A stretch of DNA of 64,000 nt from Balneola sp. Its GTDB lineage: Bacteria > Bacteroidota > Rhodothermia > Balneolales > Balneolaceae. The stretch is from the NCBI GenBank assembly GCA_003712055.1, contig RHLJ01000001.1, forward strand, positions 372,001 to 436,000. Reading direction: 5' to 3'. Made by a program: the position numbers and the translations under genes. Shown in pieces: positions 2,075 to 58,035 of this stretch. Position 1 is the stretch's first letter, and the number at the start of each line of letters is the position of its first letter. The notes beneath the pieces were generated by a model. The model saw only the letters and a list, made by a program, of their open reading frames with translations. It had not been told where the DNA came from and made no database searches.

Positions 2075-2902
2075 TTAACTGAAGTCCTGAAAGGGTTCTT
2101 CTTCTCCTGTATAATCAGCTCGAAAAAATTTAATTGCACCTAGAGTTACTGATTTAGTTATATAAATCAGAATCACAGCCATAAGTCCGTATTCACGGAA
2201 AACGATGATTATTACCAGATATGCAAAAAATAAGAGAAAGGTCCACTTCTTTGTCTTAATTGAATACTTATCAAAACGAGGAATCTTCTCAAACTGAATA
2301 GTACTAACCATTAAAAAAGAAACAATTACAATTAGTGGGATCAAGACACTGCTTACACCATTTTTAAAGAAATCAAATAAGTACACATCGTCTCTGAAAG
2401 TGAGGTAAAAGGATACTATGATGATGGCTACAGACGGTATCGGTAATCCAATAAAACTATCTGCACTTGGTTTAAGACGAGCATTTACATTAAACCTTGC
2501 CAATCGGACAGCTCCGCATAATGGCGGAATTGCACTAACAAGAATACCTAACATCCCAAATTGATATAACACAAAGTTGTAGGCCAGGAAACCCGGAGCA
2601 ACTCCGAATGAAACCATATCGCTGAGAGAATCCAGCTCTATTCCAAAATCACTATGAGCATCAGCCAATCTAGCCATAAGCCCGTCAAACACGTCGAACA
2701 TCCCGGCAGCAATAATTAACCAGGCTCCCCAAAATAAGTTACCATCTGAAATTGAAATAATAGCCAAGAAACCCGAAAAGAGATTCATCAGGGTAAAAAA
2801 GCTGGGAACAGCTATCCGTGGATTTACTGGGGGTTTCGACTTCCGGATCTCCTCCCGTCTTTTCTTGAAACCGTAATATTTCTTTTGAATCGGATATTTC
2901 AT
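2075..2902 (-). CDS. pssA: CDP-diacylglycerol--serine O-phosphatidyltransferase
   Basis: Transfers a phosphatidyl group from CDP-diacylglycerol to L-serine to make phosphatidylserine at the inner membrane. The CDP-alcohol phosphatidyltransferase signature is complete: DG, two residues, AR, eight residues, G, three residues, D, three residues, D (DVFDGLMARLADAHSDFGIELDSLSD region). Several hydrophobic segments surround it; the length of 275 residues is normal. The start lies one base after the stop of psd, so the two consecutive steps to phosphatidylethanolamine are co-transcribed and probably translationally coupled. It is the last gene of the aroE-pgeF-dxr-rseP-psd-pssA run. Confidence 0.96.
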   Translation of the reverse strand: MKYPIQKKYYGFKKRREEIRKSKPPVNPRIAVPSFFTLMNLFSGFLAIISISDGNLFWGAWLIIAAGMFDVFDGLMARLADAHSDFGIELDSLSDMVSFGVAPGFLAYNFVLYQFGMLGILVSAIPPLCGAVRLARFNVNARLKPSADSFIGLPIPSVAIIIVSFYLTFRDDVYLFDFFKNGVSSVLIPLIVIVSFLMVSTIQFEKIPRFDKYSIKTKKWTFLLFFAYLVIIIVFREYGLMAVILIYITKSVTLGAIKFFRADYTGEEEPFQDFS

Positions 2903-2903
2903 C

Positions 2904-3554
2904 TTAAACTATCTTTCCAATAACTGATTCTCCAGCCCAGGTTCGATCTCCCTCCTTCACGTGTACTTCAACATTACCGGGTACAATAACATCCATTCTA
3001 CTTCCGAATTTCATCATTCCGAACCTTTCACCTGAAACCAGATCATCACCTTCTTTAATATGATAAACAATCCTTCTGGCAAGAAAGCCTGTAATCTGCT
3101 TAAAGAAAAGTTTTGTACCCGATGAATGCATTACCCCAAAATCTGCCCGTTCATTTTCAATAGAAGCGTTCTCGTCCCAGGCCATTAAGTATTTTCCCGG
3201 ATGATATTTCAGGTATTCAAGTTTACCCGATATGGGATTTCTATTTACATGTACATCCAGCGGTGATAAAAATATACTTATTTGAGTAGCCTTGGATTTG
3301 AGATAAATATCCTCTTCGATTTCCTTAATCAATACTACTTTACCATCAGCAGGAGATATTATCAGCGATTTACCATCTGGAGTGACACGTTCAGGGTCTC
3401 GAAAAAAATAGATTACTATCGCCCAGACTATTGCAAAAAAACTGTAAATGAGATAAGAAACCCAGTGATCAATGTATTGACTGGTCAAAACAAATACGGT
3501 AGCCGTAACTACCGTAACAAGTCCCATTGTAAAGTACCCTTCTTTTGCGAACAT
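2904..3554 (-). CDS. psd: Phosphatidylserine decarboxylase, short proenzyme type
   Basis: Decarboxylates phosphatidylserine to phosphatidylethanolamine. This is the short (216-residue) class related to archaetidylserine decarboxylase, with two N-terminal membrane segments (about residues 8-50) and a soluble catalytic part. The self-cleavage site that yields the pyruvoyl cofactor is visible as KFGSRMD, with Gly184-Ser185. The motif HVNRNPISG is the conserved His-containing block seen in the family. It sits two bases downstream of rseP and one base before pssA, so it forms a phospholipid pair with pssA. Confidence 0.96.
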   Translation of the reverse strand: MFAKEGYFTMGLVTVVTATVFVLTSQYIDHWVSYLIYSFFAIVWAIVIYFFRDPERVTPDGKSLIISPADGKVVLIKEIEEDIYLKSKATQISIFLSPLDVHVNRNPISGKLEYLKYHPGKYLMAWDENASIENERADFGVMHSSGTKLFFKQITGFLARRIVYHIKEGDDLVSGERFGMMKFGSRMDVIVPGNVEVHVKEGDRTWAGESVIGKIV

Positions 3555-3556
3555 GC

Positions 3557-4885
3557 TTAAAATAGCTTCATAATATCATTAAAGATAACAAAGACCATCA
3601 AGGTTAAAAGAAGGATGAAACCGATATTTTGTGCAACAATCTTGAATTTTTCGGAAGGTTCTTTCCTGACTATCCCCTCATAAATCAAGAAAACAAGATG
3701 TCCACCATCAAGAGCTGGAATTGGAAGGATATTCATTATTGCAAGAGTGATACTAAGAAAAGCAGTAATTCTCCAGAAGCCACTAGCCCCACTTTCGTCA
3801 GTAGCTCTTTTTGTCTCCCTCGCAATAGCAATAGGACCACCTAAATTTTGCTTAACTGATACTTCTCCCCTTAGCAATAATCCAAAACTATTGAGAATAC
3901 CAGTTGTAGTTTCAATTGTTTGAGTATAGCCTTCCGAAACCGATGCAAGGAATCCATATTCAATCAGATCATAATTCAGCGAATTGATGCTTCCTCCCTG
4001 AATACCAATTTTTTTAGCTGCATCAGGAGTTACGGAGATAGCAAGAGTATCAATACCTCGTAATACCAATAAATCCATAGGGCCGGTAGAGCTTTCAATA
4101 GAAGAAACCAGACCATTCCACGAATTAACTTCAAACCCATCGGCTTCAATAATCAAATCATCTGATTCTAATCCTGCTATATCAGCAGGAGAATCACTTA
4201 CCACCTGCAATACTTTTGAGGGTAAAAGATAATCTAAGTCCAAAAACCCTCGTGTTTGTATGCTATCCAAAAAACTAGGAGGAATATTAATATCAACTGA
4301 TTCTCCATTCCTTATCACAGTATAGAATAAGTTTGAGCTGGTTATTTCTGAAGGAGAAACCAAATCATTGAAATAGTCAACATTCTTGCCATTCACTGCA
4401 ATTATCTGATCATTATTTCTGAATCCTAAGTCATATAAAAAAGACGTTTCGTCGATATAAATACCATTTTCCTGTTCTGCAAAAACAACAACTTTTCCGT
4501 TTACCCACGTCATCCCAGTAAAAATGAACCAAGCCAGGATCATATTGAATATTACTCCGGCAGTAATTACGATCATCCGTTGCCAAACCGGCTTACTTCT
4601 ATACTCCCATGGCTCGGGTTCTTTGTTCATGAATTCGGTATCCATGCTCTCATCCACCATCCCTGAGATCTTGACATAGCCGCCAAGCGGAGTAGCTCCA
4701 ATACAATAATCGGTATCTCCTTTTTTAAATCCCCATACCCGAGGAGGAAAGCCTACTGAAAAACGCTCCACACGCATCCCAAATAGCTTGGCAGCTAAAA
4801 AGTGACCTAATTCATGGATGAACACTAAGATCATAAGTGCCCCCATAAAAATGCCTATTGTCCTTAAAATGTCAATGAATTCCAT
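3557..4885 (-). CDS. rseP: RseP-type site-2 intramembrane zinc metalloprotease
   Basis: Intramembrane protease that cleaves anti-sigma factors or leftover signal peptides within the inner membrane. The zinc motif HELGH is at residues 24-28 in the first membrane helix, and the third-ligand motif ILPIPALDGGHL is near the C-terminus. Between them lie a membrane helix (about 100-120) and two PDZ-like segments; the second contains VVSDSPADIAGLESDD. Length 442 matches RseP. It starts six bases after the dxr stop, an arrangement common in bacteria, where rseP commonly neighbours dxr. No anti-sigma factor or sigma-E gene is adjacent. Confidence 0.96.
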   Translation of the reverse strand: MEFIDILRTIGIFMGALMILVFIHELGHFLAAKLFGMRVERFSVGFPPRVWGFKKGDTDYCIGATPLGGYVKISGMVDESMDTEFMNKEPEPWEYRSKPVWQRMIVITAGVIFNMILAWFIFTGMTWVNGKVVVFAEQENGIYIDETSFLYDLGFRNNDQIIAVNGKNVDYFNDLVSPSEITSSNLFYTVIRNGESVDINIPPSFLDSIQTRGFLDLDYLLPSKVLQVVSDSPADIAGLESDDLIIEADGFEVNSWNGLVSSIESSTGPMDLLVLRGIDTLAISVTPDAAKKIGIQGGSINSLNYDLIEYGFLASVSEGYTQTIETTTGILNSFGLLLRGEVSVKQNLGGPIAIARETKRATDESGASGFWRITAFLSITLAIMNILPIPALDGGHLVFLIYEGIVRKEPSEKFKIVAQNIGFILLLTLMVFVIFNDIMKLF

Positions 4886-4890
4886 ACTCG

Positions 4891-6036
4891 CTAAATTGTT
4901 GAGGCAAATGCTCTCGTTTCTTTATCTATTTCTTTAAGTAACTCAATACTTATATCCCCTTGATTAGGAATGTTTTGCATACTTTTTTCAACGACTTTCG
5001 AAATGTCAATATAACCAATTTCTTCATTCAAAAAGCGTTGCACGGCTACTTCGTTTGCAGCATTTAACACTGTTGGAGTAACTCCTCCTTCCTCTATAGC
5101 ATCTATAGCCAGCTTAACGCAGGGAAACCTTAAATAATCTACTGGTTCAAAAGTTAAATCCTGTTTCTTTGTCCAATCCATCCTTGGAGTTTCTAAGTCG
5201 AGTCTATCCGGATAAGAAAGGGCATAAATAATAGGCACCTTCATGTCCGGTAATCCAAGCTGCGCTTTACTGGAACCGTCTTTGAAAGTTACTATCGAAT
5301 GAATAATACTTTGGGGATGAATTACGGGTTCAATCTTATAAACAGGTATATCGAATAGCCAGTGAGCCTCAATTATCTCTAGCCCTTTATTCATCATTGT
5401 TGCTGAATCAATGGTGATTTTGGCTCCCATATTCCAATTAGGATGCTTCAAAGCCTGGGCTTTAGTAACACTCCTCATTTGATCTACTGAGAACGTCCGA
5501 AATGGACCGCCACTTGCGGTAATAATAATCTTCTCTAATGAGCCTTTTGGCTCCCCTACTAAACACTGTAACATAGCACTGTGTTCAGAATCAACAGGGA
5601 TCAACGTTGAGGTGGAATTCTTTAGTGATTCGAATATGAGTTCTCCGCCAACTACCAATGATTCTTTGTTCGCAAGAGCAATTTTTTTCCCGGCTTTGAT
5701 TGCTTCTATGGTAGGATGGAAACCAGAAAAACCGACCAAACTATTTACCACAGTATCTACTTTTGCATGGGTAGCAAGTCTAGAAAGATGTTCTTCTCCA
5801 GAAATAAGCTCGGATTCTGTTTTTACCAGCTCTTTTAAATTTTTGAAGAGTATATCCTTGCAGATAAGGGCGCATTCAGGGTTAAACTCATTAACCTGTT
5901 GAGCAAGCAATTCAACATTAGTATTGGCACTAAGTACGGTTACCTCAAATTTATCGGGATGCTGGCGCACAATTTCAAGTGTTTGCGTCCCAATAGACCC
6001 CGTTGATCCCAGTATGGCGAGCTTCTGTTTATTCAA
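4891..6036 (-). CDS. dxr: 1-deoxy-D-xylulose 5-phosphate reductoisomerase
   Basis: Second enzyme of the non-mevalonate (MEP) isoprenoid pathway: it isomerises and reduces DXP to 2-C-methylerythritol 4-phosphate with NADPH in the cytoplasm. The NADPH-binding loop GSTGSIG is at residues 10-16, the metal/substrate motif PVDSEHSA lies mid-protein, and NKGLEIIEAHWLF and HPQSIIHS are typical family blocks. Length 381 is normal. The start follows pgeF by 13 bases. Other MEP genes are not in the window. Confidence 0.97.
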   Translation of the reverse strand: MNKQKLAILGSTGSIGTQTLEIVRQHPDKFEVTVLSANTNVELLAQQVNEFNPECALICKDILFKNLKELVKTESELISGEEHLSRLATHAKVDTVVNSLVGFSGFHPTIEAIKAGKKIALANKESLVVGGELIFESLKNSTSTLIPVDSEHSAMLQCLVGEPKGSLEKIIITASGGPFRTFSVDQMRSVTKAQALKHPNWNMGAKITIDSATMMNKGLEIIEAHWLFDIPVYKIEPVIHPQSIIHSIVTFKDGSSKAQLGLPDMKVPIIYALSYPDRLDLETPRMDWTKKQDLTFEPVDYLRFPCVKLAIDAIEEGGVTPTVLNAANEVAVQRFLNEEIGYIDISKVVEKSMQNIPNQGDISIELLKEIDKETRAFASTI

Positions 6037-48035: not shown

Positions 48036-49370
48036 ATGGAAAATACCATAAACAGAGATCGGCTATTTTTGGGTAGTTGCCTGGCTCTCACTGTTACCTC
48101 ACTTACATTTGCCGTACGCGCTGAAATTGAAGGAGTATTTAGCTCCGATTTTGGACTAACGGCAGCAGAAATTGGATGGGCATTTGGACCTGCTTTTTGG
48201 GGATTCACCATAGCGATGTTTGCCGGTGGATTAATTATCGACCTTGTAAAAACAAAGAATGTAATCTGGATGGCCTTCTTTATGCAGCTTATAGGATTGG
48301 TTCTTATGCTCATTTCCCGCGATAAAACTATGCTATTTGTCTCTAATGTGTTTGTTGGTCTTGGAAATGGATTTGTAGAAGCAGCATTTAATCCTCTTGT
48401 TGCAACACTCTATCCTGATGCAAAAACGAAAATGTTAAATCGCTTCCATGTTTGGTTTCCCGGGGGAATTGTAATTGGTGGCTTATTGGCCTACCTGCTT
48501 GTTGATACACTTGGATTAAGCTGGCTGGTACTTGTTGGTACCTTGTTCATCCCATTAATCTGGTATGGAGTATTATTCATGGGGCAGGAAATTCCTGAAA
48601 CCGAAAGGGTTACCAGTGGAGTCTCCTATAAAGACATGTTGAAAAATACGGCAGCTCCGTATACGATCATTCTTATTGTTTCTGTGATGATTGCTTTTGC
48701 TTCTATTCCAAGCCTAAGCATCGACTTTGGTTCTAATATTACTTACATCATCGTAGTTGGATTTCTGGCGCTAATAGTCATCGAAGGTAAAGTTGTAAAT
48801 AAGATTGGGTTACTCTTCCCTTTCATCTTCATTTGTATGTTCTTAACGGCAAGCTCCGAATTAGGAACCAACCAGTTCATTAACGCATTGTTGACCGATG
48901 GTGGAGTAAATCCAATCCTTATCCTGGTATTAATTACCGGAATTATGGCGGTTGGTAGATTCTTTGCCGGGCCAATCATTCACCGCTTAAATCCTACAGG
49001 CGTGTTACTAGGATCTGCAATTCTTTCTACAGCTGGCTTATACTTACTGAGTACGGTAAGCGGAGTAGCGCCAACTTTGATATCTGCAGTAGTATTCGCA
49101 CTTGGTATTTGTTATTTCTGGCCAACCATGATTGGTTTCGTTGCAGAATATGTGCCAAAAAGTGGTGCACTTGGTCTTTCCATTATGGGTGGAACCGGGA
49201 TGGTAGCTACCTCTCTCATTCTACCAATTATGGGAGAATCTATTGATACTGCCGGGCCACAGGCTACTCTTGGTTATATGACCATTCTTCCCGCCATACT
49301 TATCGTCCTGTTTGCAGGATTATTTGTATACATGAGAGGAAAAACCGGAGAAGGCGAAGCAGCCCACTAG
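48036..49370 (+). CDS. Major facilitator superfamily transporter, sugar-porter-like
   Basis: A 444-residue MFS permease with about 12 helices. FCGP-like features include GLGNGFVEAAFNPLVATLYPD, LNRFHVWFPGGIVIGG and GRFFAGPIIHRLNP, which resemble the fucose/galactose permease branch. The N-terminal TFAVRAEIEGVFSSDFGLTAAEIGW fits helix 1. The substrate is not certain; it is 125 bases downstream of the gluconate unit and has its own terminator. Confidence 0.87.
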   Translation: MENTINRDRLFLGSCLALTVTSLTFAVRAEIEGVFSSDFGLTAAEIGWAFGPAFWGFTIAMFAGGLIIDLVKTKNVIWMAFFMQLIGLVLMLISRDKTMLFVSNVFVGLGNGFVEAAFNPLVATLYPDAKTKMLNRFHVWFPGGIVIGGLLAYLLVDTLGLSWLVLVGTLFIPLIWYGVLFMGQEIPETERVTSGVSYKDMLKNTAAPYTIILIVSVMIAFASIPSLSIDFGSNITYIIVVGFLALIVIEGKVVNKIGLLFPFIFICMFLTASSELGTNQFINALLTDGGVNPILILVLITGIMAVGRFFAGPIIHRLNPTGVLLGSAILSTAGLYLLSTVSGVAPTLISAVVFALGICYFWPTMIGFVAEYVPKSGALGLSIMGGTGMVATSLILPIMGESIDTAGPQATLGYMTILPAILIVLFAGLFVYMRGKTGEGEAAH

Positions 49371-49396
49371 GGTAAACTCTCATACTATTTAAATGA

Positions 49397-49426
49397 AAGG
49401 CAGCTAAGCAATTAGCTGCCTTTTTT
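49397..49426 (+). terminator. Rho-independent terminator of the MFS gene (module copy)
   Basis: GGCAGCTA-AGCAAT-TAGCTGCC (49399-49420), then six T. Bases 49399-49451, the hairpin plus the following promoter-like stretch, are identical to 54696-54748. Confidence 0.92.
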
Positions 49427-49429
49427 ATT

Positions 49430-49457
49430 TTGAGATAATAGTAATTCTATACACTTT
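49430..49457 (+). promoter_or_regulatory. Putative Bacteroidota-type promoter, copy 1
   Basis: TTG, 17 bases, then TACACTTT, close to the TTG-N17-23-TAnnTTTG consensus. The same arrangement recurs at 53569 and 54727. It leads a leader of about 100 bases with a GTCTC/GAGAC inverted repeat to the VGIGT gene at 49564. Confidence 0.5.
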
Positions 49458-49563
49458 TAGTCATTGTCTCAAGAGATTTACAAGAGACTCAATTTTAAAC
49501 AAGATATACGAAAGAGAGTCAAGCATTTCCGATTTCTATATCACAAAAACACTGGGAAAAACC

Positions 49564-50802
49564 ATGAGAACTAAACTTTTTCTACTCACCCTGCTTTCAA
49601 CTTTCTGCTTTAAAACTGTATCTGCTCAAAGCCTTTGGGATTCTACAGGGACTAACATCTATTACAATGCCGGAAATGTTGGAATTGGAACCAGTAGTCC
49701 TTCAAAACCCTTTCATATAATTAGCTCAACAGAACATCACCAGATTCGACTACAAGGAACTAACGATAAACATGCCTGGATTCAATATTACCCAAGTGGC
49801 AGTGATGTTTTAAATTGGCAGACAGGAGTAAATACGTATGGTTTTAGTATATATGATGTTTCTAATACCGAGTATAGATTAACAATAAATAATTCTGGAA
49901 ATATAGGGATTGGTACTGCAACTCCAGAAAGTATACTTCACTTATATGGTACAGGAGGATCAGCTTCCGGTTACAGAGTTTCAAATAGTTTTGATAATGT
50001 AAATGGGTATTTCTCTAACGATTCTGACAATTCTAATTACATAATATCCTACCAAAATACCGGAGCAACAGAAATTGAATTGCAATCAGATGGGGATGTA
50101 ATTCTGGGGCAAGCTGGAAATGTGGGTATTGGAACTAGTACACCTAACTCTATTTTGCATATAAAAAGTGATACTCCTGATGCACCGGGAACCTTAATTG
50201 TCCAAGGTAAGCAAAACGATAGTACTTATAATTCAGCAGAAATTGTTCTCAGTACAGAATTTAATACAGCAAATACTCAGACAGGAACGCAGGCTGGAAG
50301 GAAAGCACTCATCAAAGCGACGGCTAACTCGAGTTGGGGTCAAAGGGTAAGTTTAGGTTTTTACACTTCGGGAGTTGCGTCAAGCTACCCGGAAGAAAGA
50401 ATGGTTATTTCTCCAGATGGAAATATCGGAATCGGAACTGATTCACCTGAGAATGAACTCGAAGTCAACGGTACCATCCGCTCTAAAGAAGTAGTTGTAG
50501 AAGCCACAGGCTGGCCGGATTTTGTATTTTACTCTAATTACAATCTCCTTCCCCTAGAAGAAGTGGAACAATACATTGCTGAAAACAACCATCTTCCTGA
50601 GGTACCAAGCGAAGCAGAAGTATTAGAACATGGAGTCAAGCTTGGAGAAATGGACGCTACCATTCTTCAAAAAATCGAAGAGTTAACCTTGTACATGATT
50701 GAGCAGAATAAGATCAACAAGCAACAGCAAAAGTTGATTGATGTCCAATCAACAATGATTGAAGAGTTAAAAAAGGAAGTCTCGGAACTCAAAAAGAACT
50801 GA
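49564..50802 (+). CDS. VGIGT-repeat surface protein (tail-fibre-like), paralogue 1
   Basis: A 412-residue secreted protein with signal peptide (MRTKLFLLTLLSTFCFKTVSAQ). It carries four GN(V/I)GIGT-x-(S/T)P motifs spaced through a beta-rich, fibre-like body. The C-terminal module of about 120 residues starts ENELEVNGTIRSKEV, continues GWPDFVF, NNHLPEVPSEAEV and GVKLGEMDA, and ends in a coiled coil (KIEELTLYMIEQNKINKQQQ onwards). This module is common in Bacteroidota surface proteins and resembles intramolecular-chaperone or trimerisation ends. Signal peptide, leader, C-terminus and terminator are shared with paralogue 2 at 53703, while the middle differs. Confidence 0.85.
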   Translation: MRTKLFLLTLLSTFCFKTVSAQSLWDSTGTNIYYNAGNVGIGTSSPSKPFHIISSTEHHQIRLQGTNDKHAWIQYYPSGSDVLNWQTGVNTYGFSIYDVSNTEYRLTINNSGNIGIGTATPESILHLYGTGGSASGYRVSNSFDNVNGYFSNDSDNSNYIISYQNTGATEIELQSDGDVILGQAGNVGIGTSTPNSILHIKSDTPDAPGTLIVQGKQNDSTYNSAEIVLSTEFNTANTQTGTQAGRKALIKATANSSWGQRVSLGFYTSGVASSYPEERMVISPDGNIGIGTDSPENELEVNGTIRSKEVVVEATGWPDFVFYSNYNLLPLEEVEQYIAENNHLPEVPSEAEVLEHGVKLGEMDATILQKIEELTLYMIEQNKINKQQQKLIDVQSTMIEELKKEVSELKKN

Positions 50803-50805
50803 GTT

Positions 50806-50840
50806 AAAAAAGGCAGCTAAATACTTAGCTGCCTTTTTTT
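50806..50840 (+). terminator. Rho-independent terminator of VGIGT gene 1
   Basis: GGCAGCTAA-ATAC-TTAGCTGCC (50812-50833), preceded by A and followed by seven T. Same stem core as the terminators at 49397 and 54692. Confidence 0.93.
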
Positions 50841-50883
50841 ATTTAAATGGTCTCAAACAAATTATGATCAAAGAAGGACCACC

Positions 50884-51729
50884 TCAATCATTCAAAAGTT
50901 TGAGAATAGCCTCACCCACTGCCGTAGATGATTTATTATTCTGACCGGTTATTAGCTCCCGGTCTATTACCAAATGAGGGGCCCAATCCTGCTCACCTTT
51001 AGAGTAATCTCCTCCGGCATTGGTTAACGCATCCTCTGGCCAGTAAAACAACTCATCTCCTCCCAGGTAATACCTAGTAGCAATAGTTTCTTCTGAGTTA
51101 CTAAAGACAGTCATTTTATAACCTTCATAAATCCATCCTTCGCCTGGCTTTGCCTTTTTTCCAGCTCTCATTTCGACCTCGAACTCTTTGCTATTTGGCA
51201 AAGCAGATAAGAGTGCTACCGGCCCATGACATACCAGGCCTGTTGGCTTTGACTCAGCGTGAAAGTGATTCAGAAACTTACTTAGATATTCGTTTGCCAC
51301 TAAGTCGCCCAATGGAGCATGACCACCTGGAACAAATATAGCGTCAAAGTTCTCAATACCTATTTGATCAATACGAGCAAAACTTACAACCGGACTATGC
51401 TCCTTATCGGTTAGCATTAATCGATTGAACAGCGCTCTATGCGCATTATAATTTTCCTGACTCGTATCCAAAAAATGATCCGGCGTATCTGACACCGGAT
51501 CTAATGTCGGAGCCAGACCTGTAGGCGTGGCAAAAGTCACCGTATATCCTGCATCTAAAAAGATCTTGACAGGTTCCATCAATTCGTTCAGGTAAAACCC
51601 AGTTTGGTAATCGTATCCTCCTTTTAGTTTCATTTCTGAAACCTCAGATATTATTACCAGGATATTTCCTGCAAATACTACTTGAACATTAATAAGAACG
51701 GTTAATACTATTAGAAATAATTTTTTCAT
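50884..51729 (-). CDS. Secreted DJ-1/PfpI-family (type 1 glutamine amidotransferase-like) protein
   Basis: A 281-residue protein with signal peptide (LFLIVLTVLINVQVVFAG). The fold is DJ-1/PfpI of the Hsp31-like long type: the Glu region DPVSDTPDHFLD, PGGHAPLGDL, and the nucleophile-elbow Cys with adjacent His in TGLVCHGPVALL. Relatives act as glyoxalases or chaperones, mostly in the cytoplasm; export is less usual. It follows the SDR gene on the same strand, with LysR divergent. Confidence 0.88.
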   Translation of the reverse strand: MKKLFLIVLTVLINVQVVFAGNILVIISEVSEMKLKGGYDYQTGFYLNELMEPVKIFLDAGYTVTFATPTGLAPTLDPVSDTPDHFLDTSQENYNAHRALFNRLMLTDKEHSPVVSFARIDQIGIENFDAIFVPGGHAPLGDLVANEYLSKFLNHFHAESKPTGLVCHGPVALLSALPNSKEFEVEMRAGKKAKPGEGWIYEGYKMTVFSNSEETIATRYYLGGDELFYWPEDALTNAGGDYSKGEQDWAPHLVIDRELITGQNNKSSTAVGEAILKLLND

Positions 51730-51802
51730 AACGTCATAATTTTGTTATTAATTGGTTGGGATGATTCTTTGGCTAAATGGCTAACCAAAGAAGCCTGAAT
51801 TT

Positions 51803-52528
51803 CTACCAGGCTATTTCTTCTCCATCGTGCACAAACTTTCCCGTAAAATCGGCAGATGATAAACTCACTGAAGTCTTCGCTCCCTCCGGTGCTTCCAGCG
51901 GAGCATTTTTACCTCCTAAATCCGTCTTCACCCATCCAGGATGAGCCGAATTCACTTTAATGTTTGAATCCTTCAAAGCTGCCGCTAAATGCACTGTGAA
52001 TGAATTCAAAGCAGATTTGGATGCATTATAAGCGAAGGGCTTAATTCCACTCCATGGAGAGCTTTCATCACTTTGGACGGTATTAGATCCTAAAATGCTT
52101 GAGACATTTACGATCCTGGCTTCCTTACTTTTTTTGAGTAGTGGTAATAGTTTTTGAGTAAGGCTTACAAGGCCGAAGAAATTCACATCGAATGTTTCTT
52201 TTAATACTTCGGCTTTCACAATTTCAGAAGAATTAACACCTGTTGGCTCTCCGCTATGCATGATCCCTGCATTATTTACCAACACATCAAGCTTACCATA
52301 GGTAGTATCGATATGCTGTACTAAGGAATCTACTTCAGCTTCGCTAGTAACTTCTAGTTGTACTAATTCCACATCTAATCCTTCTTCTTTCAATTTTTGA
52401 ACTGCTTCTTTGCCTCTTTCCTTGTTTCTTGAAGCCATTAAAACAGTCAAACCTTCTTTTGCTAATTGTCGAGCAGTCTCAAGGCCTAAGCCTTTATTGG
52501 CTCCTGTAACTAATGCTATTGTATTCAT
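51803..52528 (-). CDS. Short-chain dehydrogenase/reductase (carbonyl reductase-like)
   Basis: A 241-residue SDR: cofactor loop TGANKGLG (residues 8-15), NNAG in DVLVNNAGIMHSG, catalytic Ser in VNVSSILGS and YNASK. The insert before the catalytic Tyr (NTVQSDESSPWSGIKPFAYN) resembles eukaryotic-type carbonyl reductases. It is the first gene of the SDR/DJ-1 pair and is divergent from the LysR gene, which probably controls it. A joint role in detoxifying reactive carbonyls is possible. Confidence 0.9.
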   Translation of the reverse strand: MNTIALVTGANKGLGLETARQLAKEGLTVLMASRNKERGKEAVQKLKEEGLDVELVQLEVTSEAEVDSLVQHIDTTYGKLDVLVNNAGIMHSGEPTGVNSSEIVKAEVLKETFDVNFFGLVSLTQKLLPLLKKSKEARIVNVSSILGSNTVQSDESSPWSGIKPFAYNASKSALNSFTVHLAAALKDSNIKVNSAHPGWVKTDLGGKNAPLEAPEGAKTSVSLSSADFTGKFVHDGEEIAW

Positions 52529-52628
52529 TTGACTATAGTTTTTTAAAGTTGACGGAGCAAGATTATTGAATTGATGATATCAAATGAAATAGCTTATTTT
52601 GCCTCATGTTATAATTATTTTTATATCT

Positions 52629-53528
52629 ATGGTTAATCTTGAATGGTATAGAACCTTTAAAGCAGTCTACAAACACCGCAACTACTCAAAGGCTGCGGAG
52701 GAGTTATTCATGAGCCAGCCAGCGGTGACTAATCAGATGAGTAAGCTAGAGGCTTATGTTGGGCACAAATTGTTTATCAGAAAATCAAAAGGTGTTGAAG
52801 CTACTGAGAACGCTAAATTCCTTAATAACTTGATTATTGAATCTCTTGATACTTTGGAAGAAGTGGAATCAATGTACAGCCGAAACGTAAGGAAAGAGGA
52901 AAAACTGTACGTTCTTGGAATCAGTGAACACCTATATAAAAGTTTCCTTTCCAACAAGTTCACCGACTTCAAACACTTGTCTATTCGATTTGAAGAGAGA
53001 AATGAAATTCTAACCGACCTGGTCAATCAACAAGAAATTGACGCCGCGATAATTCATCATGAGGTACAAACCTTTGATATACTCTCTCATAAAATTCTAA
53101 GCTCTCCATTAGTAATTGTTGGTCACCCCAATATTGACACCAACGAAATTAGTATTCACACTGAGAATCAAGACCTTCGAAAAATTCAACATTGGCTGGA
53201 ACAACAGATCTGGTTCTCGCACATGTCTACCAATCCCTTCATTAAATTGTTCTGGTTGCATTGCTTTAATAAGAAAAGGCCTAAAGTTTTCACCAACTAT
53301 ATCATTCCCAATGAATATTTCATGCTTCAAGAACTGACCAAAACAGAAGGGATTTGTGTGACCTTATTGAAAAATGCAAACGAGTTCCTTGAGGATGGAA
53401 CATTACAACTCATTTGGCAATCAGATTCATATCCGGAAAGAAATTATTTTTTAATAGCTCATAAAAAGCAAAAACACCTTTTTGAGTTATTAAAAAACCT
53501 ATTTGGAGAAACTGCCCGCTACAAATGA
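52629..53528 (+). CDS. LysR-family transcriptional regulator
   Basis: About 299 residues from ATG 52629; an ATG at 52599 would add ten hydrophobic residues (MPHVIIIFIS) unusual for LysR. The N-terminal HTH is FKAVYKHRNYSKAAEELFMSQPAVTNQMSKLE, followed by a co-inducer domain. Divergent from the SDR/DJ-1 pair with a gap of about 100 bases, the classic LysR layout, so it likely regulates them and itself. Confidence 0.92.
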   Translation: MVNLEWYRTFKAVYKHRNYSKAAEELFMSQPAVTNQMSKLEAYVGHKLFIRKSKGVEATENAKFLNNLIIESLDTLEEVESMYSRNVRKEEKLYVLGISEHLYKSFLSNKFTDFKHLSIRFEERNEILTDLVNQQEIDAAIIHHEVQTFDILSHKILSSPLVIVGHPNIDTNEISIHTENQDLRKIQHWLEQQIWFSHMSTNPFIKLFWLHCFNKKRPKVFTNYIIPNEYFMLQELTKTEGICVTLLKNANEFLEDGTLQLIWQSDSYPERNYFLIAHKKQKHLFELLKNLFGETARYK

Positions 53529-53568
53529 AGTGGTAAGTGATATATCCAGATTTAGTCACCGTTTTATT

Positions 53569-53596
53569 TTGAGATAATTGTAATTCTATAGACTTT
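53569..53596 (+). promoter_or_regulatory. Putative Bacteroidota-type promoter, copy 2
   Basis: TTG, 17 bases, TAGACTTT; near-identical to copies 1 and 3. The 5' leader that follows (53597-53702) also matches that of VGIGT gene 1, including GTCTC/GAGAC and AGAGAGTCAAGC. Confidence 0.5.
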
Positions 53597-53702
53597 AAGG
53601 CCAGTGTCTCAAGAGGTTCAAGAGACTTAATTTTAACGATGATATAAGAAAGAGAGTCAAGCTTTTTTCTATTTCTATATCGCCAAACACTAGGATAAAA
53701 CC

Positions 53703-54683
53703 ATGAAAACGAAACTTTCTCTATTCGCACTACTTTCAATTTTTTGCTTTCAAACTGTATCCGCTCAAAATGTGGGGTGGTTCTATGGATCTACAGATGG
53801 GTCTGATGCCATTGACTTAAAACTGGGCTACCGGAACTCTGGTAGTTCAAACAACTTCACGCTTTCCAGTAGATATGTGAATGGAGCTGCATACTTAGAC
53901 TATAGATCATCTGCATGGAGTAACTGGACAACCTGGGAACGAAATAGCTCGACAGGAACAAAAAATATTTTAAGATTTGGTGGCTCCGATGGATTAGGCC
54001 ATTACCTAACCATTTTTGATAAGGATAGTGGAGCAACAAGTATGGTCAAGTTAAATGCTAATGGAGATTCATTTTTTAGTAATGATCTTGGTATCGGTAC
54101 TACTTCTCCTAGTTCAACGCTTCATATACATGGCGATGGAGGTTCTGCTTCTGGCTATAGCATCTCTAATAGTTCTGAAAGTGTTAGAGGTTATTTCCGT
54201 GATAATACTGCTGATGCAGATTATGTAATCACTTATTTGGGTTCTGGAGAAGCAGAAATTGAGCTACAATCGGATGGAGATGTAATTCTGGCACAAGCTG
54301 GAAATGTTGGGATTGGTACTACAACACCCGGAAATGAACTTGAAGTCAACGGCACCATCCGTTCAAAAGAAGTTATTGTTGAAGCTACTGGCTGGCCGGA
54401 TTTCGTTTTCTACCCTGACTATGATCTCCTTCCTCTCGAAGACTTAGAGCAATTCATAGTTAAAAACAATCATCTTCCTGAAGTACCAAGTGAAGCAGAA
54501 GTGAACGAAAATGGCGTCAAGCTTGGAGAAATGGATGCTACACTTCTTCAAAAAATTGAGGAATTAACCCTGTACATGATTGAGCAGAATAAGATCAATA
54601 AGCAGCAGCAAGAGTTGATTGATGTCCAGTCAGAAATGATCGAAAAGTTAAAGCAAGAAGTCTCAGAGCTCCACGATAAATAA
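53703..54683 (+). CDS. VGIGT-repeat surface protein (tail-fibre-like), paralogue 2
   Basis: A 326-residue secreted protein with signal peptide (MKTKLSLFALLSIFCFQTVSAQ). It has two clear motifs (LGIGTTSP, GNVGIGTTTP), a shorter fibre body than paralogue 1, and an almost identical C-terminal module from ELEVNGTIRSKEV to the coiled-coil end. The segment from SGYSISNSSESVRGYF through LQSDGDVILAQAGN also matches paralogue 1 (SGYRVSNSFDNVNGYF, LQSDGDVILGQAGN). The N-terminal body differs, so the pair looks like a duplication with exchange of the exposed part. Probably displayed at the cell surface. Confidence 0.85.
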   Translation: MKTKLSLFALLSIFCFQTVSAQNVGWFYGSTDGSDAIDLKLGYRNSGSSNNFTLSSRYVNGAAYLDYRSSAWSNWTTWERNSSTGTKNILRFGGSDGLGHYLTIFDKDSGATSMVKLNANGDSFFSNDLGIGTTSPSSTLHIHGDGGSASGYSISNSSESVRGYFRDNTADADYVITYLGSGEAEIELQSDGDVILAQAGNVGIGTTTPGNELEVNGTIRSKEVIVEATGWPDFVFYPDYDLLPLEDLEQFIVKNNHLPEVPSEAEVNENGVKLGEMDATLLQKIEELTLYMIEQNKINKQQQELIDVQSEMIEKLKQEVSELHDK

Positions 54684-54691
54684 CAGAAAAC

Positions 54692-54723
54692 TCAAGGCAG
54701 CTAAGCAATTAGCTGCCTTTTTT
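54692..54723 (+). terminator. Rho-independent terminator of VGIGT gene 2 (module copy)
   Basis: GGCAGCTA-AGCAAT-TAGCTGCC (54696-54717), then six T. Identical to the terminator at 49397, including the DNA that follows. Confidence 0.92.
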
Positions 54724-54726
54724 ATT

Positions 54727-54754
54727 TTGAGATAATAGTAATTCTATAGACTTT
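54727..54754 (+). promoter_or_regulatory. Putative Bacteroidota-type promoter, copy 3, now before the cREC gene
   Basis: TTG, 17 bases, TAGACTTT; part of the 53-base block identical to 49399-49451. The long leader found after copies 1 and 2 is missing; the cREC ATG lies 24 bases downstream. Confidence 0.45.
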
Positions 54755-54778
54755 AGCTAGTCATGTACCCATGAAAGG

Positions 54779-55114
54779 ATGAAAAAACTATTTCTTGATG
54801 ATATTAGAACTATTGACATGATTTATGACAAATCCATGGAACAGGAATTTGACATAGTTAGAACTTATAGAGCCTTTGTTGACTATATCAAAATAAATGG
54901 ACTGCCTGACTTTATTAGTTTCGATAATGATTTAGGACTTGATGAGAATGGTGAATTAGCACCTGATGGTTATGCTGCCGCTAAATGGCTTGTTTATGAG
55001 TCTGGGCTCGATTTAAGGAATTTGGAATTCAAAGTACATTCTGCAAATCCGGTAGCCGCTAAACAAATTGATGGGTTATTAACTAATTATATCAATCATT
55101 TAAAAGAGAAATGA
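54779..55114 (+). CDS. Cyclic-phosphate processing receiver-domain (cREC) protein
   Basis: A 111-residue stand-alone receiver-like domain. Motifs of the cREC group are visible: LFLDDIR (residues 4-10, acidic pair), FISFDNDLG (the Asp position of a receiver replaced by an FDxDLG motif), DGYAAAKWL, and HSANPVAAKQI near the end. The family has been linked by comparative genomics to processing of 2',3'-cyclic phosphate ends and RNA damage/repair conflicts. It is preceded by promoter copy 3 and overlaps its partner gene by four bases. The exact reaction is unproven. Confidence 0.82.
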   Translation: MKKLFLDDIRTIDMIYDKSMEQEFDIVRTYRAFVDYIKINGLPDFISFDNDLGLDENGELAPDGYAAAKWLVYESGLDLRNLEFKVHSANPVAAKQIDGLLTNYINHLKEK

Positions 55115-55488
55115 GTTGGGACATTATACTATTTAACTCGAAAGAGACCATAAGTTCCATCGAACAACTGGATGAAGAGAAATTAGAGCCTATTGACTTC
55201 ACAGAAATCTTCGAAAATTCATTTGATGATATAGTCAAAGATGACAAATATCGAGAAATAAAAGGGAAAGATTATTCGATTACATTCTATACTGATAGTG
55301 AATTAGTAAGTAATAAAATGTTGAGTCTATATGGAGAAAATGGATTATTTGAGTTGATAGAACTGGCAAAACGACAAGGTTGGCAAATTTTCGATACAGG
55401 ATTGGGAAATATGATTGATTTGGATAACCCAGGGAATAATGGATATGAAAACCACAGGAAGTATGTGGAGCAAATAATAAAAAAATAA
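55111..55488 (+). CDS. Conserved hypothetical protein coupled to cREC
   Basis: A 125-residue soluble acidic protein beginning MSWDIILFNSKETI. It resembles a small family of Bacteroidota hypothetical proteins with the blocks REIKGKDYSITFYTD, NKMLSLYGENGLFELIELAK and GWQIFDTGLGNMIDLDNP. No catalytic motif is obvious; an immunity-type or partner role is only a guess. The four-base overlap (ATGA) with the cREC gene argues for coupled synthesis. Confidence 0.65.
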   Translation: MSWDIILFNSKETISSIEQLDEEKLEPIDFTEIFENSFDDIVKDDKYREIKGKDYSITFYTDSELVSNKMLSLYGENGLFELIELAKRQGWQIFDTGLGNMIDLDNPGNNGYENHRKYVEQIIKK

Positions 55489-55542
55489 AAACGGTGTACA
55501 ACAAGGTGTGGTTGCACTTCGGATATGCCCATACGCAGACTG

Positions 55543-58035
55543 TTAAAACCTAATCCAGTCTTTATCCTCTAACAATTGGATAAGGGCTGGCAAAAAGGTA
55601 ACGGATGTAAGAAGAGTCATACCTATTCCAATTACCGCCATCACTCCAAGCGACTGTAAGCCCGGATGAGCAGTAAAGAGCAGTCCTGCAAAACCGAGCA
55701 TAGTGGTGAAAGACCCCATGGTAATATGTTGTCCTGTACTTGAGAGTACCTCCCACATGCTGTTCTTACCCTCATCCCGGTAGCGATGTGCTAAGTGAAC
55801 CCCACTGTCCTCCCCTATTCCAAGGATAGCTGGAAGTACAACCAGGTTATAGAAGTTGAACTGAAGATCGAAAATCATCATGATACCAAACATCCATAGT
55901 AAACCAACCAATAATGGTAACATGGAGATCAGTGACCATCGAAAAGATCGGAAAGTAAAAATCATAAAAAGGTATATGATCAGGAAGGTAGCTCCCACCA
56001 TATAAGGACTTTCTGTCCTCATCAAATCTAGCATAGACGCTGCAACAATACTGGTACTTGCCGCATGATAGGTTTTACCTCCGTCCAGTCTTACTTCTCC
56101 TACATCATCTTTGAAGGCAATAGATAAGCGACCATCCGAAAGCCCTACCGAAGGATATATGATTACAAAACGCCCTACTTCTCCATCTTTGGTGATAAAC
56201 CTCGATTTCAGATAATCGGGGATTTGATCAATAGTGAGCGGTTCGGTGGTCTGAGAGGCACGACGAAGTTTATCAAGGTCTTCATCTTCTTCATTTACTA
56301 TAAATGGATCCTGAAGTAAATCTCTGATATTTGCAATTGTTGCAAGCTTGGCTTCCTCTTCCTCTGAAGTAGATGGAAATCGCTCCTGTAACGACTCAAT
56401 ACTCAAAATGGTAGGCGAGGTCGTGTCTTGATCTTTGATCTCCTGTAAAGCAAACATGAGCTCTTTGACCTCTTCATCTGAATCAGCAATGATGTAGGCT
56501 GGATTTCTTTTGTCCGAGTCTTCCGCCTGTCGGGCTACTTCGCGAAACTTCTCATACTCAGGAAATCGTGGCTCAAGTTCACCTGTATCATATTGAAAGC
56601 TAAGATTTCCACTTAAAGCAATTACCACTCCTGAAATGAGCAAACCAATGACTACCACTGTGCGAGCAAATGGGTATCTACGCTTTTGAATGTTATGGAA
56701 TTCTTCGTCATGACTGAACAGGATCAGGTTAAAGCGTTCAAAAATGACTAGCAAAGATGGGAGCACATACAGCATCGCAACCAGTGCAAGCATAATCCCA
56801 GTACCTGAAATAAAGCCAAATTCTGAGAAGCCTCTGAAATCAGCAAACATAAGCACATACAATGCACAGGCTGTAGTGAACGCGCTTACCAATATGGCTT
56901 CACCGGTTTTATCATTGGTAGCATAAATAGCAGTTTCCACGTCCATCCCACTTGAGCGTAATTCTATGTACCGGGCGTAATAATGAATTCCATAATCGAT
57001 CCCAAGACCAAAAAGAATTACAAAAAGCACTGAGGTCATGGTATTCAGCATTCCCAGATAGAAATAGGTAATACCAAAAGTCCAAAGAAGACTAATAAGC
57101 AAGGGCACTCCAATGATGAGAACAGGAATAGGCATCCGAATGATATGGCTCCATAACGAATACTCCTGATCTCCGTTTGAGCCTCTTCTGTAATGAATGT
57201 ATTTCTTGATAAAGAAGTACAACATCACCAGCAACACAACACTGCTGATACCGGATGCAAAACTTCCAAGCACATCATTCATAATAGAAGTCAATTCTTC
57301 TAGATGTCGCTTTAACCTGCCTCCATATTGTACCTGCATCTCAGGATGGAAGGAAGCAGGATTGAGCGCTGTAATCAACGAGTCGTACGTCTCAAACATG
57401 TCTTCCAGATACTTAATATCACTCTTGGAGCCTGTAGGGAAGAACTTAAGCACCATTATGGTACTGTCTTCACTAATGGGGTATTCTGATGGAACTAAAG
57501 TCTCATAACTTTCCTGGAAGCCCTCTGCCCTGGTATCCTCTTCTTCATCATCTTCTTCAAAATCAATATAAAGAGGGCTCGCTTCTAATTTAGCCTGTTC
57601 GATTTCGTCTTCGAGCCACTGAGTAATATCCACCAGTTCCTGGTTACTGGCCAGATATAAGGCATTATCTTTTAATACTTCTGTGTCTTTCTTGTACTCA
57701 GCTCTTTTAAAATAAACATCCTGATACCTTTGGTAATAAAGTTCTAGTGTTTTCGGGATGAGCGCTTCTGCAAAAGCTTTGTTCGCTTCAAAACTTGGAG
57801 AATTGATCGCCACCTGCATTTCCGTCTCCCCACCAACGGTTTCTTTTAATTCCTCCAGAGCCAGGACATTGGGGTGATCGGCAGGTAGTAAATTCGCTAT
57901 GTCAGTATCAACCTTAAGTTGTGAAGCATAATATCCGCTGAGAGCCGCCAGTGCTAAAGAGAAGATAATCACTAAAAAAGGATGGCGGATATTAAATGTT
58001 AAAAGAGGCCTGAACAGCCCAAGAAGTTGCTTCAT
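55543..58035 (-). CDS. RND-superfamily exporter, MMPL/HAE3 type
   Basis: An 830-residue membrane protein with the two-fold RND plan: helix 1 (about 20-38), a large periplasmic loop (about 40-245), five helices (about 250-450), helix 7, a second periplasmic loop (about 490-680), and five more helices. Paired motifs in helix 4 (GLGIDYGIHYYARY) and helix 10 (GIGEDSGVHLAHRYRDEG) carry the acidic proton-relay residues. HAE3/MMPL proteins export lipids or hopanoids. The substrate is unknown. It is downstream of the DUF3047 gene in the same direction (43 bases). Confidence 0.93.
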   Translation of the reverse strand: MKQLLGLFRPLLTFNIRHPFLVIIFSLALAALSGYYASQLKVDTDIANLLPADHPNVLALEELKETVGGETEMQVAINSPSFEANKAFAEALIPKTLELYYQRYQDVYFKRAEYKKDTEVLKDNALYLASNQELVDITQWLEDEIEQAKLEASPLYIDFEEDDEEEDTRAEGFQESYETLVPSEYPISEDSTIMVLKFFPTGSKSDIKYLEDMFETYDSLITALNPASFHPEMQVQYGGRLKRHLEELTSIMNDVLGSFASGISSVVLLVMLYFFIKKYIHYRRGSNGDQEYSLWSHIIRMPIPVLIIGVPLLISLLWTFGITYFYLGMLNTMTSVLFVILFGLGIDYGIHYYARYIELRSSGMDVETAIYATNDKTGEAILVSAFTTACALYVLMFADFRGFSEFGFISGTGIMLALVAMLYVLPSLLVIFERFNLILFSHDEEFHNIQKRRYPFARTVVVIGLLISGVVIALSGNLSFQYDTGELEPRFPEYEKFREVARQAEDSDKRNPAYIIADSDEEVKELMFALQEIKDQDTTSPTILSIESLQERFPSTSEEEEAKLATIANIRDLLQDPFIVNEEDEDLDKLRRASQTTEPLTIDQIPDYLKSRFITKDGEVGRFVIIYPSVGLSDGRLSIAFKDDVGEVRLDGGKTYHAASTSIVAASMLDLMRTESPYMVGATFLIIYLFMIFTFRSFRWSLISMLPLLVGLLWMFGIMMIFDLQFNFYNLVVLPAILGIGEDSGVHLAHRYRDEGKNSMWEVLSSTGQHITMGSFTTMLGFAGLLFTAHPGLQSLGVMAVIGIGMTLLTSVTFLPALIQLLEDKDWIRF

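What the first reader, a model, noticed from the sequence alone, without database searches (positions are those of the whole stretch)
49399..54754. Identical 53-base terminator-promoter blocks bracket a variable surface-protein region
Bases 49399-49451 equal 54696-54748, and a third promoter copy lies at 53569. The two VGIGT genes between them share leader, signal peptide and C-terminal module but differ in the exposed body. This is the arrangement expected for a locus that gains, loses or swaps cassettes by homologous recombination, giving antigenic or adhesin variation.
Basis: partly seen in the sequence, partly recalled or inferred. Interest (0 to 1): 0.6.

Follow-up and report, generated by a model that had tools for sequence, protein, structure and literature searches.

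The report
Duplicated surface-fibre genes with shared promoter
A bacterium carries two old copies of a gene for a secreted fibre-like protein, related to the prey-gripping fibres of Bdellovibrio, and the identical DNA blocks beside them look like inherited gene-unit junctions rather than an active switch.

Summary
The repeat is real: 49397-49451 equals 54694-54748 exactly (55 bp; 60/61 over 61 bp), with a promoter half at 53562-53597. Within the 3.63-Mb genome the block is confined to this locus. It fuses a terminator hairpin (T) to a promoter-like element (P). T behind the upstream MFS gene predates the fibre genes: a congener has T there without P. Best reading: an old tandem duplication of a unit T-P-leader-fibre gene, with a truncated third unit and a 2.7-kb three-gene insert. 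The two genes diverged long ago (C-terminal dS about 1) and show no conversion tract (p = 0.82), so their alike ends reflect selection, not recent exchange. The products are relatives of Bdellovibrio mosaic adhesive trimer fibres (profile E 9.6e-23). Family-wide, mosaic exchange is supported: 44 of 523 paralogue pairs have silent-site tracts at p<0.01 (5.2 expected), including a pair on this genome's contig C6. The MFS-RND junction differs in content among the three congeners.

The parts
48036..49370 (+). MFS transporter gene, left flank; its terminator is the ancestral T
   Evidence: Pfam MFS_1 3.3e-25; orthologue in G001, 94% aa, followed by T without P
49397..49451 (+). block copy 1: terminator hairpin T (stem 49395-49424) fused to promoter-like P
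   Evidence: exact 55-bp match to 54694-54748; hairpin -19 kcal/mol, z -5.07; terminator scan
49452..49563 (+). 5' leader of gene A, 82/104 identical to leader of gene B
49564..50802 (+). fibre gene A (412 aa): signal peptide ending SAQ, VGIGT modules, conserved C-terminal coiled-coil module
50113..50415 (+). 303-bp VGIGT-bounded module present in A, absent in B; the B junction lies inside the VGIGT repeat
   Evidence: D7; alignment
50804..50845 (+). terminator T' after gene A (stem 50806-50839), usable on both strands
   Evidence: -20.1 kcal/mol, z -6.69
50837..53569 (.). three-gene insert lying between T' of unit A and P of unit B, with TTTTATTT at each edge (50837-50844 and 53562-53569)
   Evidence: no terminal inverted repeat
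50884..51729 (-). DJ-1/PfpI family gene, in 1 of 38 genomes searched (own only)
51803..52528 (-). short-chain dehydrogenase gene
   Evidence: Pfam adh_short 2.3e-51
52629..53528 (+). LysR-type regulator gene
   Evidence: Pfam HTH_1 8.3e-19
53562..53597 (+). promoter-like P of unit B (no T in front)
53703..54683 (+). fibre gene B (326 aa)
54694..54748 (+). block copy 2 (T of gene B plus P of a truncated third unit)
   Evidence: hairpin -17.3 kcal/mol, z -5.06
54749..54768 (+). about 20 bp of leader-like remnant, then homology to units A and B ends
   Evidence: alignment (weak)
54779..55114 (+). cREC (cyclic-phosphate processing receiver domain) gene, now behind P
   Evidence: Pfam cREC_REC 7.1e-23
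55543..58035 (-). RND-type transporter gene, right flank conserved in 37 of 38 genomes

Best explanation
The locus is an old tandem duplication of a secreted trimeric-fibre gene behind an MFS transporter gene. The unit is terminator (T) - promoter (P) - 5' leader - fibre gene. Unit A is complete; unit B lost its junction to T when three unrelated genes were inserted between T' and P; unit C keeps T-P and about 20 bp of leader and now stands in front of a cREC gene. T is the older, native terminator of the MFS gene; P came with the fibre genes. The ends of genes A and B stay alike through purifying selection on the C-terminal trimerisation/cap module and on signal peptide and leader, while the VGIGT-bounded body modules turn over by insertion, deletion and replacement (A has one 303-bp module more than B). 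In the family at large, ends are also homogenised by exchange between paralogues. The proteins are most likely cell-surface or secreted adhesive fibres. Shown: block, units, insert, divergence, fold relationship of the shaft, exchange elsewhere in the family. Inferred: P is a promoter, trimeric state, adhesive role, order of events.
For: Block confined to this locus, 3 P and 3 T copies. G001 has T behind the same MFS gene but no P and no fibre gene. A/B fourfold identity 16/30 in the C-terminal core, dS 0.95-1.1 with dN 0.08, against G000/G001 orthologues at fourfold 0.44 (MFS) and 0.38 (RND). No conversion tract A/B, p = 0.82. Three-gene insert at the T'/P seam with TTTTATTT at both edges. 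VGIGT-bounded 303-bp module difference. Shaft matches Bdellovibrio MAT fibres by profile (E 9.6e-23) and Foldseek (8ond, E 3.3e-4, prob 1.00); model has beta repeats then a long C-terminal helix 274-325. Family arrays: 50 of 80 loci with 2 or more genes, up to 12; C-terminus more alike than middle in 84 of 88 adjacent pairs.
Against: 60/61 identity of the two T-P blocks exceeds what the A/B leader identity (0.79) predicts (P about 1e-5), so a more recent local copying of the block, by conversion or a later duplication, is possible; constraint on hairpin and promoter is my alternative and is untested. P does not fit the sigma-70 consensus scan on the + strand. The fold model is of modest confidence (mean pLDDT 70, pTM 0.40) and whole-chain TM-scores to the matches are low (0.17-0.22 by query length). 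The order of events rests on one congener.
Confidence: 0.6

Rival explanations
1. Active cassette locus: the identical blocks are live substrates for homologous recombination that deletes, duplicates or swaps fibre genes within the population.
For: 55-bp exact direct repeat, long enough in principle for RecA-dependent exchange (recalled); block identity above that of the leaders; variable junction in the genus; exchange tracts in the family and in this genome's C6 pair; collapsed gene at C6.
Against: A/B are old and without conversion tracts; P is equally alike in the old-diverged middle copy; no variant allele could be looked for.
Confidence: 0.15
2. Insertion of one 5.3-kb element at a T-P site, the second block being the duplicate left by single-crossover (Campbell-type) integration of a circle.
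For: Direct repeats at both outer edges; left half (T) is native to the site in G001; junction is an insertion hot spot.
Against: No recombinase in the segment; P is absent from the G001 site; P also occurs inside the segment (53562) and A/B are separately related units.
Confidence: 0.1
3. The segment is the remains of an integron cassette array like the one at the same junction in G001.
For: G001 has an internally deleted tyrosine-integrase fragment (N-terminal SAM domain, Pfam 4.5e-6; weak 25% match to relatives' IntI) and attC-like sites in its insert; IntI is over cut-off in 16 of 38 relatives.
Against: No IntI over cut-off in any of the 3 genomes of the genus; the one attC-like candidate in the window (55490-55545) folds no better than shuffles (z +0.91); DJ-1 and SDR genes run against the array direction; fibre genes carry their own P and T.
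Confidence: 0.07
4. Prophage tail-fibre cargo.
For: All 9 proteins of A1 match PHROG tail-fibre family 18345; relatives in 26 viral-contig loci.
Against: Signal peptides at the start of the aligned proteins, no phage genes among the neighbours scanned, tandem arrays in chromosomes of many Bacteroidota.
Confidence: 0.04

Closest known systems
Mosaic adhesive trimer (MAT) fibres of Bdellovibrio bacteriovorus (PMC10769870; PDB 8ond, 8oml, 8ojn, 8ol4)
   Same: VGIGTxxPxxxL repeats fit the published capping-loop consensus V-G-G/N-pi-X-X-P-X-X-X-L; profile and fold match to the shaft; mosaic design with one constant and one varied part; many paralogues per genome.
   Different: Here the constant part is C-terminal (helical) and the varied part follows the signal peptide; proteins are 326-523 aa, not about 1,000; no S74 domain and no conserved 130-aa domain after the signal peptide; genes in tandem arrays.
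Phage tail fibres with VGIGT-type repeats (PHROG 18345, 9942)
   Same: Sequence match of the repeat region in 9 of 9 and 8 of 9 proteins.
   Different: Secreted by signal peptide, chromosomal, no phage operon at this locus.
Domain rearrangement and allelic exchange in Porphyromonas gingivalis surface proteins (PMC5266723, seen in search listing only)
   Same: Exchange among surface-protein modules in Bacteroidota.
   Different: Other protein families; documented between strains, which could not be tested here.

Membership tests
Bdellovibrio-type MAT fibre | capping-loop motif of the trimeric beta-helix | tested here: met
   VGIGTxxPxxxL in all nine A1 proteins; alignment to 8ond over the motif
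Bdellovibrio-type MAT fibre | beta-helix/beta-prism shaft fold | tested here: inconclusive
   Foldseek 8ond E 3.3e-4 prob 1.00 but TM by query about 0.2; model mean pLDDT 70
Bdellovibrio-type MAT fibre | conserved beta-rich domain of about 130 aa right after the signal peptide | tested here: not met
   region after the signal peptide is the varied part: 0.33 identity in 88 adjacent pairs against 0.30 between random loci; Bdellovibrio domain itself not compared
Bdellovibrio-type MAT fibre | S74 domain or another adhesive tip at the C-terminus | tested here: inconclusive
   no Pfam S74 hit; profile-profile with 14 relatives' S74 tails 50% over 42 coiled-coil columns only
Bdellovibrio-type MAT fibre | trimer displayed on the cell surface | not testable with these tools
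   needs expression and microscopy
Antigenic-variation locus | silent copies and one expressed copy | tested here: not met
   both genes intact, each with start codon, signal peptide and P
Antigenic-variation locus | recent conversion between copies | tested here: not met
   A/B silent-site run test p = 0.82; dS about 1
Antigenic-variation locus | structural variation among strains | not testable with these tools
   one genome per species held; metagenome scans capped at 0
Integron cassette array | integron integrase in the genome | tested here: not met
   TIGR02249 over cut-off in 0 of 3 genomes of the genus, 16 of 38 relatives
Integron cassette array | attC sites between genes | tested here: inconclusive
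   single candidate 55490-55545 folds at z +0.91; no attC covariance model was built

The most novel reading that the evidence does not exclude
Bacteroidota and allied phyla carry a widespread class of mosaic fibres of reversed polarity to Bdellovibrio MATs (constant C-terminal helical cap, exchanged VGIGT-bounded body modules), kept in tandem arrays of up to a dozen genes whose identical ends are recombination handles that let the body be swapped; the T-P blocks in this window are one such handle.
Probability: 0.3. Interest if true: 0.65.

Novelty: new variant of a known kind. Interest (0 to 1): 0.42.

Why it matters
It links an unannotated, very common protein family of Bacteroidota (no Pfam domain above cut-off) to the structurally solved prey-recognition fibres of Bdellovibrio, and gives a concrete, testable picture of how such fibre repertoires diversify: tandem duplication, module insertion/deletion at VGIGT repeats, and homogenised ends. 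It also shows that an eye-catching identical repeat need not mean active switching: at this locus the coding evidence says the copies are old.

Tried and rejected
Common-promoter reading: rejected, block only at this locus in the genome. Common terminator: GGCAGCTN3-14AGCTGCC occurs 3 times in G000, all here, and 0 times in G001 and G002; each congener has a mutated T-like hairpin at the junction. Rfam matches at 50794-50901 (CsrC, mir-1252, SNORA47) are far below gathering scores and only see the T' hairpin. NCBIfam gave nothing credible for the family. S74 kinship of the C-terminus: inconclusive. Integron origin: G001 yes, window not supported. Transposon: no terminal inverted repeat at the edges of the three-gene insert. 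Literature: searches for VGIGT (13 papers; titles show no work on this family), for Bacteroidetes tail-fiber/tandem/surface-protein/recombination terms, for integrons in Balneolaceae, for tail fiber domain-containing protein with Flavobacterium (0 papers) and for tail fibre/adhesin/gene-conversion terms found no description of these arrays; only the open library was searched.

Limits of counts: one search used only + strand genes of 240-420 aa with gaps of at most 400 bp; one search left out domains under 85 profile columns, pairs under 30 silent codons and pairs without any difference, and pairs are not independent; loci were grouped into genomes by hand from record names. In one search the leader/SP class (10 pairs) is inflated because the 150-bp upstream stretch of a gene can overlap the C-terminus of its neighbour. 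One search counts include some fragments, and several loci come from the same genome. L042-L044 served only as BLAST subjects; L140-L141 and L183-L185 were fetched and not analysed.

Full report
OBSERVATION. The repeat is as described and slightly longer: 49397-49451 and 54694-54748 are identical over 55 bp, 60/61 over 61 bp. The first half is a strong hairpin followed by T (T; -19.0 and -17.3 kcal/mol for the two copies, z about -5), the second half a promoter-like element (P). A third P lies at 53562-53597 without T in front, and a third hairpin, T', lies at 50812-50833 behind the first gene without P. In the whole genome (3.63 Mb, 9 contigs) P and T occur only here: the other hits are 16-32 bp partial matches, and the hairpin pattern occurs three times, all at this locus, and not at all in the two congeners. 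P scores in no sigma-70-type hit on the + strand, so calling it a promoter is inference from position and conservation.

THE UNITS. Aligning the three unit starts shows unit A (T-P-leader-gene A), unit B (P-leader-gene B) and unit C (T-P, about 20 bp of leader-like sequence, then a cREC-domain gene at 54779). Between T' of unit A and P of unit B lie three unrelated genes, DJ-1/PfpI (-), short-chain dehydrogenase (-) and a LysR regulator (+). This 2.7-kb insert sits exactly at the T/P seam, with TTTTATTT at both edges (50837-50844, 53562-53569) and no terminal inverted repeat. The DJ-1 gene is found in none of the other 37 genomes searched.

HISTORY OF THE JUNCTION. The left neighbour, an MFS gene, has an orthologue in 1 of the other 37 genomes, congener G001 (94% aa); the right neighbour, an RND-type gene, is present in 37 of 38 genomes. 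In G001 the MFS gene is followed by T (93% over 30 bp) but not by P, and then by other genes: a deleted tyrosine-integrase fragment, TIR, alpha/beta hydrolase, metallo-beta-lactamase-fold and serine beta-lactamase-fold genes. In G002 the interval holds a glycosidase-like gene and another transporter. Hence T belongs to the MFS gene and predates the fibre genes, P came with them, and the interval differs in gene content among the three congeners.

AGE AND EXCHANGE AT THE LOCUS. Genes A and B have a C-terminal dS of 0.95-1.1 with dN 0.08 (fourfold identity 16/30) and dS 1.39 in the shared body module; orthologues of G000 and G001 are at fourfold 0.44 (MFS) and 0.38 (RND). The duplication is therefore old, somewhat younger than the species split. 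A silent-site run test, which asks whether identical silent codons are clustered as after gene conversion, gives p = 0.82 for A/B (longest run 7, 59 of 93 silent codons identical). The likeness of the C-termini is thus purifying selection. Against this reading stands the block: 60/61 identity is improbable (about 1e-5) at the leader identity of 0.79 (82/104). Because P is nearly as alike in the old middle copy (1 and 3 mismatches in 36), constraint on a promoter and a hairpin is a sufficient explanation, but a later copying of the block is not excluded. A carries one 303-bp VGIGT-bounded module more than B.

THE PROTEINS. Both start with a signal peptide ending in SAQ and end in a conserved module with a long helix. 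No Pfam model reaches its cut-off; 9 of 9 relatives match PHROG tail-fibre family 18345. A profile of 47 relatives matches Bdellovibrio fibres Bd2133 (8ond, E 9.6e-23), Bd1334, Bd3182 and Bd2439 over the VGIGT repeats, and Foldseek with the predicted model ranks 8ond first (E 3.3e-4, probability 1.00, low TM-score; model pLDDT 70). The paper on these fibres (PMC10769870; outline, abstract and selected passages read) gives a capping-loop consensus V-G-G/N-pi-X-X-P-X-X-X-L that the VGIGTxxPxxxL repeats fit, and a mosaic design with one constant and one varied end. In the present family the constant end is C-terminal, the reverse of Bdellovibrio, and the conserved domain behind the signal peptide is missing, so I do not file it as a MAT member, only as working alike.

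THE FAMILY. In 80 loci from one scan of genome contigs (the best 80 of 420 confirmed), all 80 carry the C-terminal module and 50 carry two or more genes, up to 12 in 11.7 kb. In 88 adjacent pairs of 29 loci, identity is 0.35 in the signal peptide, 0.33 in the middle and 0.70 at the C-terminus; the C-terminus exceeds the middle in 84 of 88. Of 532 pairs of one genome, 79 share an exact stretch of 40 bp or more, mostly in the C-terminus (67); the longest, 275 bp exact within 369 bp at 98.4%, is leader plus signal peptide of two loci of a Balneolaceae chromosome (CP030887) about 337 kb apart by their contig ranges, whose bodies then diverge. The silent-site test gives p<0.01 in 44 of 523 pairs (5.2 expected) and p<0.001 in 13, in 20 of 49 genome groups at p<0.01; in the window's own genome the pair on contig C6 has a run of 37 identical silent codons, and beside it lies a collapsed, out-of-frame gene made of a signal peptide joined to a C-terminal tail (L022:2081-2193). 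So mosaic exchange is real in the family and in this genome, but is not seen between the two genes of this finding.

VERDICT. The decisive test, structure of the locus among strains, was not possible with one genome per species.

Noticed in passing
L022:582-1751 and 2195-5001; L023:1701-11579 (G000 contigs C6 and C5); L053:2585-6209: Other fibre genes of this genome sit beside type II secretion / type IV pilus genes (T2SSE ATPase, secretin, PilN, PilO, pilin-like, prepilin peptidase; OmpH-like next door), and in the Balneolaceae chromosome CP030887 two fibre genes follow a pilin-like and a prepilin-peptidase gene. This may point to the export or display route.
   Followed up: partly
L040:6824-12457 (G001, same MFS-RND junction): Looks like an integron remnant: internally deleted integrase fragment, then TIR, hydrolase and lactamase-fold genes with attC-like palindromes between some of them. 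Integron integrases are over cut-off in 16 of 38 relatives but in none of the 3 genomes of the genus.
   Followed up: partly
L022:2081-2193 (G000:C6): Collapsed fibre gene: signal-peptide start joined out of frame to a C-terminal tail, directly before two intact fibre genes.
   Followed up: yes
L048:4664-5032 and L053:3671-4039 (CP030887): Two fibre loci share 369 bp at 98.4% over leader and signal peptide while the bodies differ.
   Followed up: yes
G000:C3:40896-41066 (L176): The genome also has one protein ending in an S74 autoproteolytic chaperone domain.
   Followed up: no
window 54779-55488: A cREC-domain gene overlaps the start of an unknown 125-aa gene; both are low in G+C (0.33 and 0.32 against 0.39 for the window) and stand behind the orphan P of unit C.
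   Followed up: no
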